Source of the DNA: Acidobacteriota bacterium
GTDB lineage: Bacteria > Acidobacteriota > Terriglobia > Bryobacterales > UBA6623
Length of the DNA: 64,000 bases
Assembly (NCBI GenBank): GCA_016125275.1
Contig: WGMB01000003.1
Location: 496,001-560,000 of the forward strand
Direction of reading: 5' to 3'
The notes under the pieces were generated by a model that worked only from the letters and a program-made list of their open reading frames with translations, was not told the DNA's origin and ran no database searches. Positions 2,018 to 5,659 of the stretch are shown here, in pieces (within the stretch, counting starts at the first letter, position 1; every line of letters starts with the position of its first letter). A program made the position numbers and the translations under genes.

Positions 2018-3610
2018 CTACTCCGCCGCGAAGTCCGCCATCACCTGCGGCGTCGCGGTGTCGAAGCCCACCACGTCCAGCATTCCGGCATCGTTCGGAT
2101 CCGCAATGGTGAACCCGTTCGACACCATCGCCACCACCACCAGCTTCGCCGGGATGCCGGTCTTGTCGCGGTACCGGCGCAGAGCCTCCACCGGATGCAT
2201 CCGCCCGAACCACGTCTCGCTGTCGGTCAACACCACGAAGGCGTCGACCTGCAGCCCCTGCTCAAGAGCCGCCAGCATCGGCAGCGACGCGTCCGTCGCT
2301 CCGAACGGCAACCCGTCGGTCGTCTCGAGCGCCTGCTCCAGGGAATCCGTCGCCCGGATGCTCAACCGCTGCATCTCGTGCGCGAATGCCCCAAAGGTGT
2401 ACTGCGGCTCCGTGCGGGCGATGGTCATCGCCATCGCCGCCGCCGCCACGCGCGGAGTGAGCCCCGGAACCCCGGCGATCTCTCCGTATCCCATCGAGCC
2501 CGACACGTCGAGCGCGAGGTAGAACCGCTTGCCCGTCGCCGGGGCGTTCTCGAACGCCCGGTAGAACGCCCGATCCAACGCGTCGACCACGGTCGGGACC
2601 GGCGCCCATTCGCCGCTTCCGCGCACACCCTTCCCGGCCGCGTAGGTCCGCAGAGCGGCCAGCACGGCAATCGGGTGGACGCGCGCTTTGCGCAACGCCT
2701 CGGCGTCCCCCAGCCGCTCGGCCGCCGCACGGGCGGTCGCGCTCAGCGGCGCCATCAGGCCCACCCTCGTCAGAGTGGCCAGGTTCCGGATCAACGCCGT
2801 CAGCGGCATCCGATCGAACAGCGCCTCCCACACCTCCGGCGACTGCAGAAACTGCGTCGGGATCATCTCCCGCGTCAGCTCATAGTCGCGAATCAGCGTG
2901 GCGGCCTCCCGCGCGGTCGCCGCCGTCCGGGCCTTCTCGTACCCTTCCAGCAGGCGCAGCTCCGGCCAAACCGCCGCATCGAGCCGCCCCTGGGTCGCCC
3001 AGCCGAACAGAGCGTCACGCGCTCCCTCGGCCTTCGGATGCGCCAACCGCAGCAGGTCGCGGTGCGACCACCCTTCCCGCTGGCGGTACTTGGCCATCTG
3101 GTAGGCCCGCTCGCTCACCGAGCGCGACAGGTACCAGTCCGCCACGGCCGACCGCAGGCCCCGGCCCCAGCCGCGCATCGAGTCCACATACTCCGCAAAG
3201 CGGAACAGGTGCGTCCCGGTGCGAGCGACGATCGGCAGCGCCCGGAAGGCCGCCCGCTTCGTGCGGTCATCCCCGGCCGAAGCCGCCAGCGCCAGCGCGA
3301 ACAGCGCCGGATCGTTCTTCGGCGCGCGTCCGCCGTCGCTGACCTTCACGATCAGCCGGATCGCCCGCAGCCCGTCGGCTTCGATGGCGCGCAGCGTCGC
3401 CTCGGCGTTCTCCAGCGCCAGCTTCCGCTCGGAGGCGTAGTACGATCCCCCTTCCGCTCCCAGAATGAGGAACCGCTCCATCCGCTTCCAGTCGTCGACC
3501 GGAAACACGAATCCGCCGGCGGAGTTCAAGACCATCTCCGAACCCCGCCCAAACAACGGTTCGGACTGCGGGGTCGGCCCGGCGATCACTTGCGTCAAAT
3601 AGTTCAACAT
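2018..3610 (-). CDS. rsr: Ro60/Rsr ortholog: TROVE domain plus vWA RNA-binding protein
   Basis: A 530-residue TROVE-domain protein. The N-terminal two thirds is the all-helical HEAT-like TROVE ring; a vWA domain follows with an intact MIDAS (LDVSGSMG near residue 367, FGATDAS, VLTDSETW). The chosen start MLNYLTQVI (3608-3610) has AAGGAGG upstream; an in-frame extension to 3661 would read through the Y RNA 3' side and lacks a ribosome site. Known role of the family: Ro60 binds Y RNA on its outer surface and misfolded or single-stranded RNA ends in its central hole; the Deinococcus ortholog Rsr works with PNPase and RNase II in rRNA maturation and decay. Three candidate Y RNAs lie directly upstream on the same strand, which fits that role. 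No rtcB/rtcA genes, often seen next to rsr, are nearby. Confidence 0.95.
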   Translation of the reverse strand: MLNYLTQVIAGPTPQSEPLFGRGSEMVLNSAGGFVFPVDDWKRMERFLILGAEGGSYYASERKLALENAEATLRAIEADGLRAIRLIVKVSDGGRAPKNDPALFALALAASAGDDRTKRAAFRALPIVARTGTHLFRFAEYVDSMRGWGRGLRSAVADWYLSRSVSERAYQMAKYRQREGWSHRDLLRLAHPKAEGARDALFGWATQGRLDAAVWPELRLLEGYEKARTAATAREAATLIRDYELTREMIPTQFLQSPEVWEALFDRMPLTALIRNLATLTRVGLMAPLSATARAAAERLGDAEALRKARVHPIAVLAALRTYAAGKGVRGSGEWAPVPTVVDALDRAFYRAFENAPATGKRFYLALDVSGSMGYGEIAGVPGLTPRVAAAAMAMTIARTEPQYTFGAFAHEMQRLSIRATDSLEQALETTDGLPFGATDASLPMLAALEQGLQVDAFVVLTDSETWFGRMHPVEALRRYRDKTGIPAKLVVVAMVSNGFTIADPNDAGMLDVVGFDTATPQVMADFAAE

Positions 3611-3663
3611 GAGCTTTGTTCCTCCTTCCCTCTGGGTTGTTCTCTCTTCTTCCACACACACGA

Positions 3664-3740
3664 ACGGGGAACGGATGAGTGGATGGCTGACGGACGGTTT
3701 TGCAGGACGATAACCGTCAACCTTCGACCCGTTCCCCGCT
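3664..3740 (-). ncRNA. Candidate Y RNA A: compact Ro60-binding hairpin without tRNA module
   Basis: Read on the minus strand, an outer 10-bp stem pairs 3729-3738 with 3665-3674 and an inner 9-bp stem pairs 3714-3722 with 3685-3693 (one G-U). They are separated by an internal loop with GUCGAA on the 5' side and AUCCACUCAU on the 3' side. The 5' strand GGGUCGAAGGUUGACGG followed by UUAUC resembles the conserved Ro-binding strand of animal Y RNAs (GGUCCGAAGG...GUUAUC). It lies 54 nt upstream of the rsr start, so it could be a separate RNA or part of the rsr leader. No poly-U terminator follows. Strand is set by the asymmetric loop, which matches Y RNA B. Confidence 0.82.
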
Positions 3741-3759
3741 GTTTCTTCTACCTACGCAT

Positions 3760-3913
3760 CCGGACAGGTAAAGTTGGCGGCCAACGGAAGATGCCCCATG
3801 CGGAGGCGACTTCTTGTTTGTTGTACTGGGCGGCGCCTCGCTAGCGGCGCCGGCGGGCTTGCGACCCGCCTTTGTCAGTTGGCTTGATAACCGTTGTCCA
3901 TCGACCCGTCCTT
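3760..3913 (-). ncRNA. Candidate Y RNA C: Ro60-binding helix with degenerate tRNA-like module
   Basis: On the minus strand the 5' side (3911 down to 3891) reads GGACGG, GUCGAU, GGACAACGG, then UUAUC, the same pattern as hairpin A. The 3' partner CCGUUGGCC (3787-3779) pairs with the inner strand at 8 of 9 positions, followed by CAACUUUACC and CCUGUCC, resembling the CAACUCAUCCGUCC of hairpin B. The apical insert contains a 6-bp stem with a 7-nt loop UCGCAAG (3852-3870), placed like a T arm, then a capped GGCGCC self-complementary stem (3831-3852), placed like an acceptor stem. No D arm is recognisable. This could be a decayed or divergent YrlA-type RNA. An alternative local hairpin at 3773-3785 competes with the 3' pairing. 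Confidence 0.55.
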
Positions 3914-3940
3914 CAACCTCTTGTCAATGCTTGCCATTCG

Positions 3941-4082
3941 AGACCGGACGGATGAGTTGTCGCAGGGATGGTGACGGACGCTCTTGCCGCTGAGCTACGG
4001 CCGCGCCGAGCGCGGCCGGCCGGACTCGAACCGGCGGCCTTCCGTTCCTGAGAACCATCCCTGCTCCGACCCGCCCGGGTCG
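3941..4082 (-). ncRNA. yrlA: Y RNA B (YrlA-type): Ro60-binding helix plus permuted tRNA cloverleaf
   Basis: Minus-strand RNA. Outer stem 4071-4078 with 3944-3951 (8 bp, one G-U), internal loop GUCGGA / GACAACUCAU, then a perfect 11-bp stem 4054-4064 with 3962-3972. Inside is a complete tRNA-like fold in permuted order: anticodon-stem strand ACGGA (4045-4041), 5-nt variable loop AGGCC, T arm GCCGG-UUCGAGU-CCGGC (4035-4019), acceptor 3' strand CGGCCGC capped by a UCG loop to GCGGCCG (4018-3998), U8-A9, D arm GCUC-AGCGGCAA-GAGC (3995-3980), one nucleotide, then UCCGU (3978-3974). Known bacterial YrlA RNAs have exactly this architecture: the acceptor stem is closed by a loop and the anticodon stem joins the Ro-binding module. 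A minus-strand TTGACA (4108-4103) is correctly placed for initiation near 4075, though a good -10 is not obvious. Confidence 0.9.
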
Positions 4083-4089
4083 AAGAATC

Positions 4090-4615
4090 AGTGAGTGCAA
4101 GCTGTCAAAAATCGCTCGGAGATCAGGGGGAGACAATATCCCCCGACGCCCTCGAAATCCTGCGCCATGCAGCGACCAAACCGGTCGCCGCTTGCTCGGT
4201 CAGGCCGTCCGCAGACGGCGCCGCTTGCTGACGCGGTCGAGCCGCGGGTCAGTCAGCGGGAAATGGAAACCCTCGTCAGCGATACACGAATCCTGCGTGA
4301 TCGGTGAGCGGGGGCGGTTGGCTTTCAGGATTGAGGGCTCGGAGGGCCGAGCGTCGAGGCTGAACGCCAACAGCGGACGCGACCGAAGCGCTGATCGTGG
4401 ATGTCGTTCATTGACTTCGTCGTCCTCCGTGGCATTCGTGGGAAGGGCGGTTGCGCGAAACTAACCACCACTCAGCAGAGGGTAACCCGGCCCGCCGGGC
4501 GATTGCAAGGGAAAAATGCAAACTCCCCGGAATTTTCCATCCGTCCGCCGCCACTGGACACTCTTCGCCGGTTATGCCACGCTATGGGCGCATTTCGACG
4601 GAGGTTATGAGACAG
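4090..4615. other. Intergenic region with four clustered hairpins, no convincing gene
   Basis: No plausible protein gene lies between the Y RNA cluster and the lactonase-like gene. The first 170 bp hold a series of short perfect hairpins: 4126-4131 with 4139-4144 (loop GACAATA), 4172-4177 with 4183-4188, 4204-4209 with 4214-4219 (loop CGCA), and 4228-4236 with 4242-4252. They could form part of another structured RNA or simply be a divergent promoter region in GC-rich DNA. No U-run follows any of them. The rest (about 4260-4600) shows nothing I can name apart from the GGAGG ribosome site at 4600-4604 of the next gene. Confidence 0.4.
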
Positions 4616-5659
4616 ATGACGCATGCTCCATCCAAGACGATCCTGGCGATAGCGACGGTTCTGGCGCTGGGTTGCGCCGCGAGCGAGCCGCCGGAAGAGG
4701 CCAACCCCCTCCGGCCGGCGGGCGAAGGACAGGTCTACCGGGCCGATCCCGGCCTGGACGCTCTGGTCCCCGAGAACGCCATGATCGAGAAGGTCGCCGG
4801 CGGCTTCATGTTCATCGAAGGACCGGTGTGGGTCACGCGCGCCTGGGAGGGAACGCCCTTCCTGCTGTTCAGCGACGTGCTCGGCAACGCCATCTACAAG
4901 TGGTCTCCCTCCGGCGGAGCCCCCACGGAGTTCAAGAAGCCCGTCTTCGAAGGCGAGGTGGCCGAAGGGCGGCTGGCCGGCTCCAACGGCATGACGCTCG
5001 ACGCCGACGGCAACCTCTTCGTGGCCGAGCACGGCAACCGGCGCATCTCCAAGGTCACGCCCGACGGCAAGTGGACTTCCTTCGTCGACAAGTACGACGG
5101 CAAGCGCTTCAACAGCCCCAACGACCTCGTCTGGCGCGGCGCGGACTGGCTGTACTTCACCGACCCGCCGTATGGCCTAATCGGCCAGGACGAGAGCGAA
5201 GACAAGGAGCAGGACCAGAACGGCGTCTACCGGGTGAGCAAGGACGGCAAGACCGTCGAACTGCTCGAGCCCCGCATGTCGCGCCCCAACGGCATCGCCT
5301 TCTCGCCGGACGGCGCGACGATGTACGTCGCCAACTCCGACCCGGCGCAGAAGCACTGGCAGGCCTTCTCGATCCACGAGGACGGCACCCTGGGCCTCAG
5401 CCGCACCTTCTACGACGTGACTGACCAGATGGAAGAAGGCTTGCCCGACGGGCTCAAGGTCGACAACCAGGGCAACCTGTTCGCGACCGGCCCGGGCGGC
5501 GTCTGGATCTTCTCGCCCGACGGCAAGCACCTGGGCACGATCAAGCCGACCGAGGTGCCGGCCAACGTGGGCTGGGCCGACGGCGGCTCGACGCTGTACA
5601 TGACGGCCCGGACGGGCCTGTACCGCATCAAGCTCTCCACCGGCGGCAAGATCCCGTAG
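4616..5659 (+). CDS. SMP-30/gluconolactonase-family lipoprotein
   Basis: A 347-residue secreted protein of the SMP-30/gluconolactonase (LRE-like) six-bladed beta-propeller family. The N-terminus MTHAPSKTILAIATVLALGC ends in a lipobox (LALGC), so it is probably a lipid-anchored periplasmic or outer-membrane protein. Family features include FIEGPVW near residue 65, the SPNDLVW motif, YFTDPPYGL, RPNGIAFSPDG and GLPDGLKVD, which supply the divalent-metal ligands (E, N, D) of these lactonases. The start at 4616 is 11 nt after GGAGG; the ATG at 4607 is too close to it. Substrate is unknown; members hydrolyse sugar lactones or related esters. It stands alone on the plus strand. Confidence 0.88.
   Translation: MTHAPSKTILAIATVLALGCAASEPPEEANPLRPAGEGQVYRADPGLDALVPENAMIEKVAGGFMFIEGPVWVTRAWEGTPFLLFSDVLGNAIYKWSPSGGAPTEFKKPVFEGEVAEGRLAGSNGMTLDADGNLFVAEHGNRRISKVTPDGKWTSFVDKYDGKRFNSPNDLVWRGADWLYFTDPPYGLIGQDESEDKEQDQNGVYRVSKDGKTVELLEPRMSRPNGIAFSPDGATMYVANSDPAQKHWQAFSIHEDGTLGLSRTFYDVTDQMEEGLPDGLKVDNQGNLFATGPGGVWIFSPDGKHLGTIKPTEVPANVGWADGGSTLYMTARTGLYRIKLSTGGKIP

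What the first reader, a model, noticed from the sequence alone, without database searches (positions are those of the whole stretch)
3665..4078. Same two-sided internal loop repeated in three hairpins with different stems
The inner stems are unrelated in sequence (GGUUGACGG, GCAGGGAUGGU, GGACAACGG, each with its own complement), while the loop strands are conserved: 5' GUCGAA, GUCGGA, GUCGAU; 3' ending CACUCAU, AACUCAU, AACUUUA, each followed by CC(U)GU. Stem variation with constant loops is natural covariation within a single locus and points to one protein reading the loop. Two of them also share UUAUC right after the inner stem.
Basis: seen in the sequence. Interest (0 to 1): 0.7.

Follow-up and report, generated by a model that had tools for sequence, protein, structure and literature searches.

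The report
Three tandem Y RNAs beside Ro60
The three hairpins are bacterial Y RNAs, small RNAs thought to dock on the neighbouring Ro60 protein: they share one docking base and carry different heads, and the docking base bears the same UUA(U/C)C signature that animal Y RNAs carry.

Summary
On the minus strand, 53 nt upstream of a Ro60 gene (TROVE plus vWA_Ro60), lie three tandem Y RNAs at 3664-3739, 3759-3914 and 3942-4080. They share one two-stem base: lower stem ending GGGU, bulged C in CGAA/CGAU/CGGA, a 9-10 bp inner stem, then UUAUC (UUCUC in one). Their heads differ: a plain loop, a diverged domain, and a permuted tRNA mimic. Covariance models built only from phage and other bacterial Y RNAs pick exactly these three as top hits in the 7.55 Mb genome (81, 40.5 and 30 bits). 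Rfam YrlA finds only the tRNA-mimic copy, below its cut-off. This is a new member of a known kind. More interesting: the Y RNAs partnering this animal-like Ro60 clade in bacteria and phages have UUA(U/C)C where animal Y RNAs have it, while YrlA-type Y RNAs beside more distant Ro60s do not. Binding and expression are inferred, not measured.

The parts
2018..3610 (-). Ro60 (Rsr) gene, 530 aa, TROVE + Ro60 vWA domain; ATG at 3610
   Evidence: Pfam PF05731 9.5e-47 and PF25045 1.1e-62; phmmer to D. radiodurans Rsr 2nvo 3.7e-132, Xenopus Ro 1yvp 1.8e-126, human RO60 9nen 1.8e-124
3621..3626 (-). probable ribosome binding site (AGGAGG) of Ro60
   Evidence: read from sequence
3664..3739 (-). Y RNA copy A: plain hairpin. 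Lower stem 3727-3739/3664-3676, bulged-C loop CGAA 3723-3726, inner stem 3714-3722/3685-3693, UUAUC 3709-3713, 3' loop AUCCACUC 3677-3684
   Evidence: R1 46.1 bits, only hit in the genome; R2 40.5 bits; fold z -6.3
3759..3914 (-). Y RNA copy B: same base (CGAU 3900-3903, inner stem 3891-3899/3779-3787, UUAUC 3886-3890), diverged tRNA-mimic-like head without the T-loop and D-loop consensus
   Evidence: R2 30 bits, E 0.0024 in genome, E 2e-5 in window; fold
3942..4080 (-). Y RNA copy C: same base (CGGA 4065-4068, inner stem 4055-4064/3962-3971, UUCUC 4050-4054, 3' loop 3954-3961) with permuted tRNA-mimic head
   Evidence: R2 81 bits E 3.3e-16; Rfam YrlA RF02553 32 bits E 7.5e-5, below gathering 69
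4019..4035 (-). T-arm of the tRNA mimic (GCCGGUUCGAGUCCGGC)
   Evidence: sequence; R2 alignment
3999..4017 (-). closed acceptor-like hairpin of the tRNA mimic (GGCCGCGC UCG GCGCGGCC)
   Evidence: sequence; R2 alignment
3980..3998 (-). D-arm of the tRNA mimic (GUAGCUCAGCGGCAAGAGC)
   Evidence: sequence; R2 alignment

Best explanation
Three tandem Y RNA genes lie immediately upstream of, and on the same strand as, a bacterial Ro60 (rsr) gene. Each transcript closes on itself through a lower stem, a bulged-C internal loop and an inner stem that together form the Ro60 docking base (inferred: Ro60 binds this base on the outside of its HEAT ring through the conserved Lys/Arg/His patch). Stems are free to change in sequence as long as they pair; the loop and the UUAUC step are not, because Ro60, or a partner in the same particle, reads them (inferred). 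What varies is the head: copy A is a plain loop that would merely gate Ro60; copy C carries a permuted tRNA mimic, which in known YrlA RNAs is the effector side that engages PNPase and tRNA-modifying enzymes; copy B carries a diverged version. One Ro60 can therefore be loaded with different heads and used as a gated or tethered RNA-quality-control particle. Shown here: genes, structure, conservation, covariation in relatives, linkage to Ro60. Inferred from other organisms: expression, binding, gating, PNPase tethering.
For: Adjacent gene is Ro60 by two Pfam domains and by solved relatives; residues at Xenopus Ro K170, R174 and H187 are K, R and H here (my count on the alignment; H187 as the Y RNA contact: PMC4030889). 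Model R1 (44 Y RNA cores from phages, plasmids and other bacteria, none from the window) hits copy A at 46.1 bits, the only hit in the genome. Model R2 (17 full-length tRNA-mimic Y RNAs) has the three hairpins as its three best genome hits; the next ones (C11) are tandem tRNA genes. Helices not used to pick the sequences covary: acceptor 7 of 7 pairs with changes on both sides, T-arm 3 of 5, D-arm 2 of 4. Structure-only scan with no sequence constraint: 8 of 12 two-stem hairpins in Ro60 regions exit into UUAYC, against 0 of 8 in 44 kb of control. Class-wide, R1 hits only genomes carrying this Ro60 clade. In G245 the Y RNAs lie downstream of Ro60 and in phage Forza on both sides, which fits trans-acting RNAs rather than a leader switch. 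PNPase is encoded (962.8 bits).
Against: No transcript, binding or modification data. No promoter or terminator consensus was found in the region. Two of the closest Ro60 relatives (Hydrogenophilaceae MAG L032 and G222) show no Y RNA of this core type, in the genome or near Ro60. Copy B is the weakest hit (30 bits) and its free fold does not clearly prefer the Y RNA form. Cores for R1 were chosen partly by pairing and by UU(A/C)(U/C)(C/U), so the covariation and the UUAYC frequency in A2 are partly circular.
Confidence: 0.9

Rival explanations
1. The hairpins are cis-acting leader elements of the Ro60 mRNA (attenuator or autoregulatory binding sites), not separate RNAs.
For: Copy A ends 53 nt upstream of the Ro60 ATG on the same strand, so it could be in the 5' UTR; Ro60 binding to its own leader would be a natural feedback.
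Against: Same RNAs lie downstream of Ro60 in G245 and on both sides in phage Forza; two copies carry elaborate heads, one a tRNA mimic whose T-arm, acceptor and D-arm covary in relatives; no terminator-like site.
Confidence: 0.06
2. The common loop is a generic structural repeat (tandem tRNA remnants, terminator-like or REP-like hairpins) without link to Ro60.
For: The tRNA-mimic model picks up tandem tRNA genes as weak look-alikes (C11), and copy C contains tRNA arms.
Against: The three hairpins are the top three in the genome; R1 gives one hit in the genome and hits three genomes among 399, all at Ro60; T-arm precedes D-arm with a closed acceptor between, which is no tRNA order within one gene.
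Confidence: 0.02
3. They are Y RNAs, but the constant loop and UUAUC are read by a partner other than Ro60 (for example a nuclease or a modification enzyme), Ro60 needing only the lower stem and bulged C. (A variant of the best explanation; its confidence overlaps with it.)
For: In nematode sbRNAs the UUA(U/C)C motif is needed for a DNA replication assay (PMC4450293), and the bulged C of the lower stem is named as the main Ro60 site (PMC4030889).
Against: The UUAYC core was seen with the animal-like Ro60 clade, while bacteria with more distant Ro60s have YrlA-type bases with other sequences at that place; this points to Ro60 itself but does not prove it.
Confidence: 0.3

Closest known systems
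YrlA RNA (Rfam RF02553; Salmonella and others)
   Same: Permuted tRNA mimic: T-arm, closed acceptor, D-arm on a Ro60-binding stem, next to rsr; copy C matches at 32 bits
   Different: Base sequence differs (CGRA/UUAYC here, CGAAUGC/CUACAU in YrlA); score well below the gathering cut-off of 69; copies A and B do not match
YrlB RNA (Rfam RF02565)
   Same: A short Y RNA-like partner of YrlA (78-position model); copy A is alike in plan (YrlB's plan from memory)
   Different: No match of any window copy to RF02565
Deinococcus radiodurans Y RNA / RYPER particle
   Same: Closest solved Ro60 relative is D. radiodurans Rsr (3.7e-132); Y RNA tethers Rsr to PNPase there (PMC7790460, PMC4726728)
   Different: D. 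radiodurans Y RNA sequence could not be compared here; tethering not tested here
Metazoan Y RNAs and nematode sbRNAs
   Same: [quoted passage not shown] PMC4030889)
   Different: No fixed UG-CA core in the upper stem, no poly(U) tail; the Rfam Y RNA model does not hit; tRNA-mimic heads have no metazoan counterpart known to me
Actinobacteriophage Y RNAs beside Ro-like genes
   Same: Same base and same mixture of plain and tRNA-mimic heads, 1-6 copies beside Ro-like genes
   Different: Carried by phages; Y RNAs in mycobacteriophages were already reported (Chen 2014 as cited in PMC12282133)

Membership tests
Y RNA (Ro60-associated small RNA, general) | encoded next to a Ro60 orthologue | tested here: met
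   Ro60 with TROVE and vWA_Ro60 domains starts 53 nt downstream of copy A
Y RNA (Ro60-associated small RNA, general) | 5' and 3' ends pair into a long imperfect stem, with the head in between | tested here: met
Y RNA (Ro60-associated small RNA, general) | bulged C in the lower stem as Ro60 site | tested here: met
   C of CG(A/G)N stands between GGGU and a G that can pair with the opposite pyrimidine in all three copies; 42 of 44 relatives have that G-Y pair. Sequence-level only; the bulge itself is a prediction
Y RNA (Ro60-associated small RNA, general) | physical binding to Ro60 | not testable with these tools
   needs pull-down or gel shift
YrlA (RF02553) | score at or above the family cut-off of 69 bits | tested here: not met
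   copy C 32 bits, copies A and B no match
YrlA (RF02553) | tRNA mimic in the order T-arm, closed acceptor, D-arm | tested here: met
   copy C only; R2 alignment; covariation in relatives
YrlB (RF02565) | match to the family model | tested here: not met
   no hit of the window
[quoted passage not shown]
   UUAUC in copies A and B; UUCUC in copy C; UUAYC in 38 of 44 relatives, though cores were picked with a looser form of it; independent structure-only scan 8 of 12 against 0 of 8
Metazoan Y RNA / sbRNA | conserved UG-CA core of the upper stem | tested here: not met
   inner stems vary freely
RYPER (Ro60, Y RNA and PNPase) | PNPase encoded in the genome | tested here: met
   962.8 bits to TIGR03591; found in nearly all bacteria, so weak support
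RYPER (Ro60, Y RNA and PNPase) | PNPase tethered by the Y RNA head | not testable with these tools
   needs co-purification

The most novel reading that the evidence does not exclude
The Ro60 docking base with bulged C, GC-clamped inner stem and UUA(U/C)C is an ancient unit that travels with the animal-like Ro60 clade through bacteria, plasmids, phages and animals. If so, the animal UUAUC motif, so far tied to DNA replication initiation, is older than eukaryotes and belongs first to the Ro60 particle, with heads (plain, tRNA mimic, others) swapped on top.
Probability: 0.4. Interest if true: 0.68.

Novelty: new member of a known kind. Interest (0 to 1): 0.5.

Why it matters
It adds three Y RNAs with three different heads in one bacterium, outside the reach of the Rfam models at their cut-offs, and gives two working covariance models that find this type. 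It also makes a concrete question testable: is UUAUC, conserved in animal Y RNAs and required for sbRNA activity in a replication assay, really a Ro60-particle signal already present in bacteria? The same motif beside bacterial and phage Ro60 genes offers simple systems to test that.

Tried and rejected
Rfam at gathering thresholds: nothing in the window, and in 12 Ro60 loci only tRNA. Rfam with an E-value limit on copy A alone and on a phage pair: only chance-level families, no Y RNA family; metazoan kinship could therefore be argued only from motif and plan, not from a model hit. Close Ro60 relatives in genome contigs: only one locus, without a Y RNA of this type. R1 could not find copies B and C because the long heads exceed its reach; R2 was built for that. 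Leader-switch and generic-repeat readings were considered and rejected (see rivals). Whole-genome download was not available. Key papers (Chen 2014, Sim and Wolin 2018, Wang 2018, Chen 2013, Sim 2020) are not held, so whether UUAYC in bacterial Y RNAs has been described there is not settled.

Full report
WHAT IS THERE. The finding lies on the minus strand between a Ro60 gene (2018-3610, minus) and a divergently oriented SMP-30/gluconolactonase-like gene (plus, ORF 4451-5659; Pfam SGL). Ro60 carries TROVE (9.5e-47) and the Ro60 vWA domain (1.1e-62). Its closest solved relatives are D. radiodurans Rsr (3.7e-132), Xenopus Ro (1.8e-126) and human RO60 (1.8e-124). Positions corresponding to Xenopus K170, R174 and H187 are K, R and H in KYRQREGWSHRDLLRLAH (my count on the alignment). 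H187 is described as essential for contact with Y RNA (PMC4030889); the roles of K170 and R174 are from memory.

Reading the minus strand, three hairpins follow one another with gaps of a few tens of bases: 4080-3942 (copy C), 3914-3759 (copy B), 3739-3664 (copy A). The Ro60 start codon at 3610 follows 53 bases after copy A, with AGGAGG at 3626-3621.

CHECK OF THE OBSERVATION. GU of GUCGAA pairs with AU of the 3' strand, so the lower stem ends GGGU/AUCC (GGGU/ACCU in copy B). The remaining loop is CGAA (A), CGAU (B) and CGGA (C) on the 5' side, and AUCCACUC, GCCAACUUU and GACAACUC on the 3' side. The first loop base, C, is followed by a G that can pair with the pyrimidine next to the lower stem, which leaves a bulged C. 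After the inner stem come UUAUC (A, B) or UUCUC (C). Copy A folds at -38.4 kcal/mol, z -6.3 against shuffles; copy C z -3.05; copy B as folded there z -1.58.

WHAT IT IS. Copy C matches Rfam YrlA (32 bits, E 7.5e-5, below the cut-off 69). Its head is GCCGGUUCGAGUCCGGC (T-arm), GGCCGCGC-UCG-GCGCGGCC (closed acceptor) and GUAGCUCAGCGGCAAGAGC (D-arm): a tRNA mimic permuted so that T precedes D, as in YrlA (model alignment; the mimicry is described in PMC8394870). Copy B has a stem-loop at the place of the T-arm and one at the place of the acceptor, but the T-loop reads UCGCAAG and the D-arm consensus is lost. Copy A has a plain loop. So one base carries three different heads.

RELATIVES. tblastn with the window Ro60 finds 347 phage records, mostly Mycobacterium and Streptomyces phages, and 60 plasmid records. 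Around about 20 such loci the same two-stem base recurs in 1-6 copies, mixing plain and tRNA-mimic heads: Cashline, BearBQ, Sparky, FuzzBuster, LinStu, prophiGD43A-5, Forza, Trina, Spelly, Karp, Coruscant, Zooman, SM23, Nonomuraea, and two genomes of the window's class, G252 and G245. In G245 they lie downstream of Ro60; in Forza on both sides.

INDEPENDENT TESTS. R1 was built from 44 non-window cores with the head cut out. R2 was built from 17 full-length non-window tRNA-mimic Y RNAs. R1 finds copy A at 46.1 bits and nothing else in the 7.55 Mb genome. R2 lists copies C (81 bits, 3.3e-16), A (40.5, 5.4e-6) and B (30, 0.0024) as its three best in the whole genome. The next hit (26.7 bits) lies in a run of tandem tRNA genes. 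Over 399 genomes of the class R1 hits three, G000, G252 and G245, each at its Ro60; G252 and G245 were in the training set. Among 41 close genomes it hits only the window's own.

COVARIATION. In the cores 93.4% of cells pair, with 15 of 16 pairs changed on both sides. That is partly circular, because the cores were chosen for pairing. In the full-length set the T-arm, acceptor and D-arm were not used in choosing: acceptor 7 of 7 pairs, T-arm 3 of 5 and D-arm 2 of 4 show changes on both sides, and 95-100% of cells pair.

THE UUAYC STEP. I chose cores with UU(A/C)(U/C)(C/U) after the stem, so its frequency in A2 (UUAUC 23, UUACC 15, others 6) is biased. A scan on structure alone, with no sequence rule, found 12 two-stem hairpins in 9 kb of Ro60 regions; 8 exit into UUAYC, while 0 of 8 do so in 44 kb of control stretches. 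Nematode sbRNAs and vertebrate Y RNAs have 'typically UUA(U/C)C' at the same place, needed for sbRNA activity in a replication assay (PMC4450293), and a 9-bp upper stem with GC clamps. Bacteria of the same phylum whose Ro60 branches far off in the tree carry YrlA-type RNAs with GACGAAUGC..CUACAU instead, and class relatives with divergent TROVE proteins carry a third base, GCCGGUGG..UACUUC..UUCCCCGGC. R1 does not hit those loci. So the base appears to follow the Ro60 clade. Whether this has been published for bacteria I could not check: the main papers are not held.

HOW IT LIKELY WORKS. Shown: three Y RNA genes with a common base and different heads, beside Ro60, in a genome that encodes PNPase. 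Inferred from D. radiodurans and Salmonella (PMC7790460, PMC4726728, PMC8394870): Ro60 binds the base, the RNA lies on the ring's outer surface and gates access, and the head recruits a partner such as PNPase. Three heads would give three kinds of Ro60 particle.

LIMITS. No expression, binding or modification data. Copy B is the weakest. Two near relatives of this Ro60 (L032, G222) have no Y RNA that R1 or R2 detects, so the pairing of RNA and protein is not universal or the RNA has diverged. The genome's other sampled family members lack TROVE altogether, which suggests gain by transfer or repeated loss. The tree groups the window Ro60 with L032, G222, G245 and G252 (98/98), not inside a phage group; animal and Deinococcus Ro60 were not in that tree, so 'animal-like' rests on the sequence scores.

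Noticed in passing
L006, L009, L011, L015, L022, L023, L028-L031 (class relatives with divergent TROVE): A third Y RNA type next to these genes: base GCCGGUGG(C/U)G(U/A)AG..AC(G/A)G(U/A)UACUUC..GUUCCCCGGC with a permuted tRNA mimic; the loci of this kind that hit Rfam YrlA score 35-53 bits, below the cut-off.
   Followed up: partly
L040 (G252) and L041 (G245): Ro60 and its Y RNAs sit inside or beside large tRNA gene clusters (31 and 10 tRNA genes by ARAGORN in 10 kb), like those in tRNA-rich actinophages.
   Followed up: no
L092 2200-2998; L101 1389-2959; L097 2420-2932 and 4545-5960: Phages prophiGD43A-5, Trina and Forza carry about five or six Y RNA-like hairpins each, plain and tRNA-mimic, unannotated or annotated in the records only as tRNAs.
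   Followed up: partly
L096 2403-2974 (Picosynechococcus plasmid): Two stretches called tRNA by Rfam upstream of Ro60 look like permuted or nested tRNA mimics following GGUUAUC/GAUUAUC.
   Followed up: no
L093, L094 (Rhizobium and Bosea plasmids): Alphaproteobacterial Ro60 loci have a variant base with GAGC(U)C/CCCC in place of GGGUCGAA.
   Followed up: no
G000 and its family: TROVE is present in the window's genome and in none of 13 other genomes of its family in the sample.
   Followed up: partly
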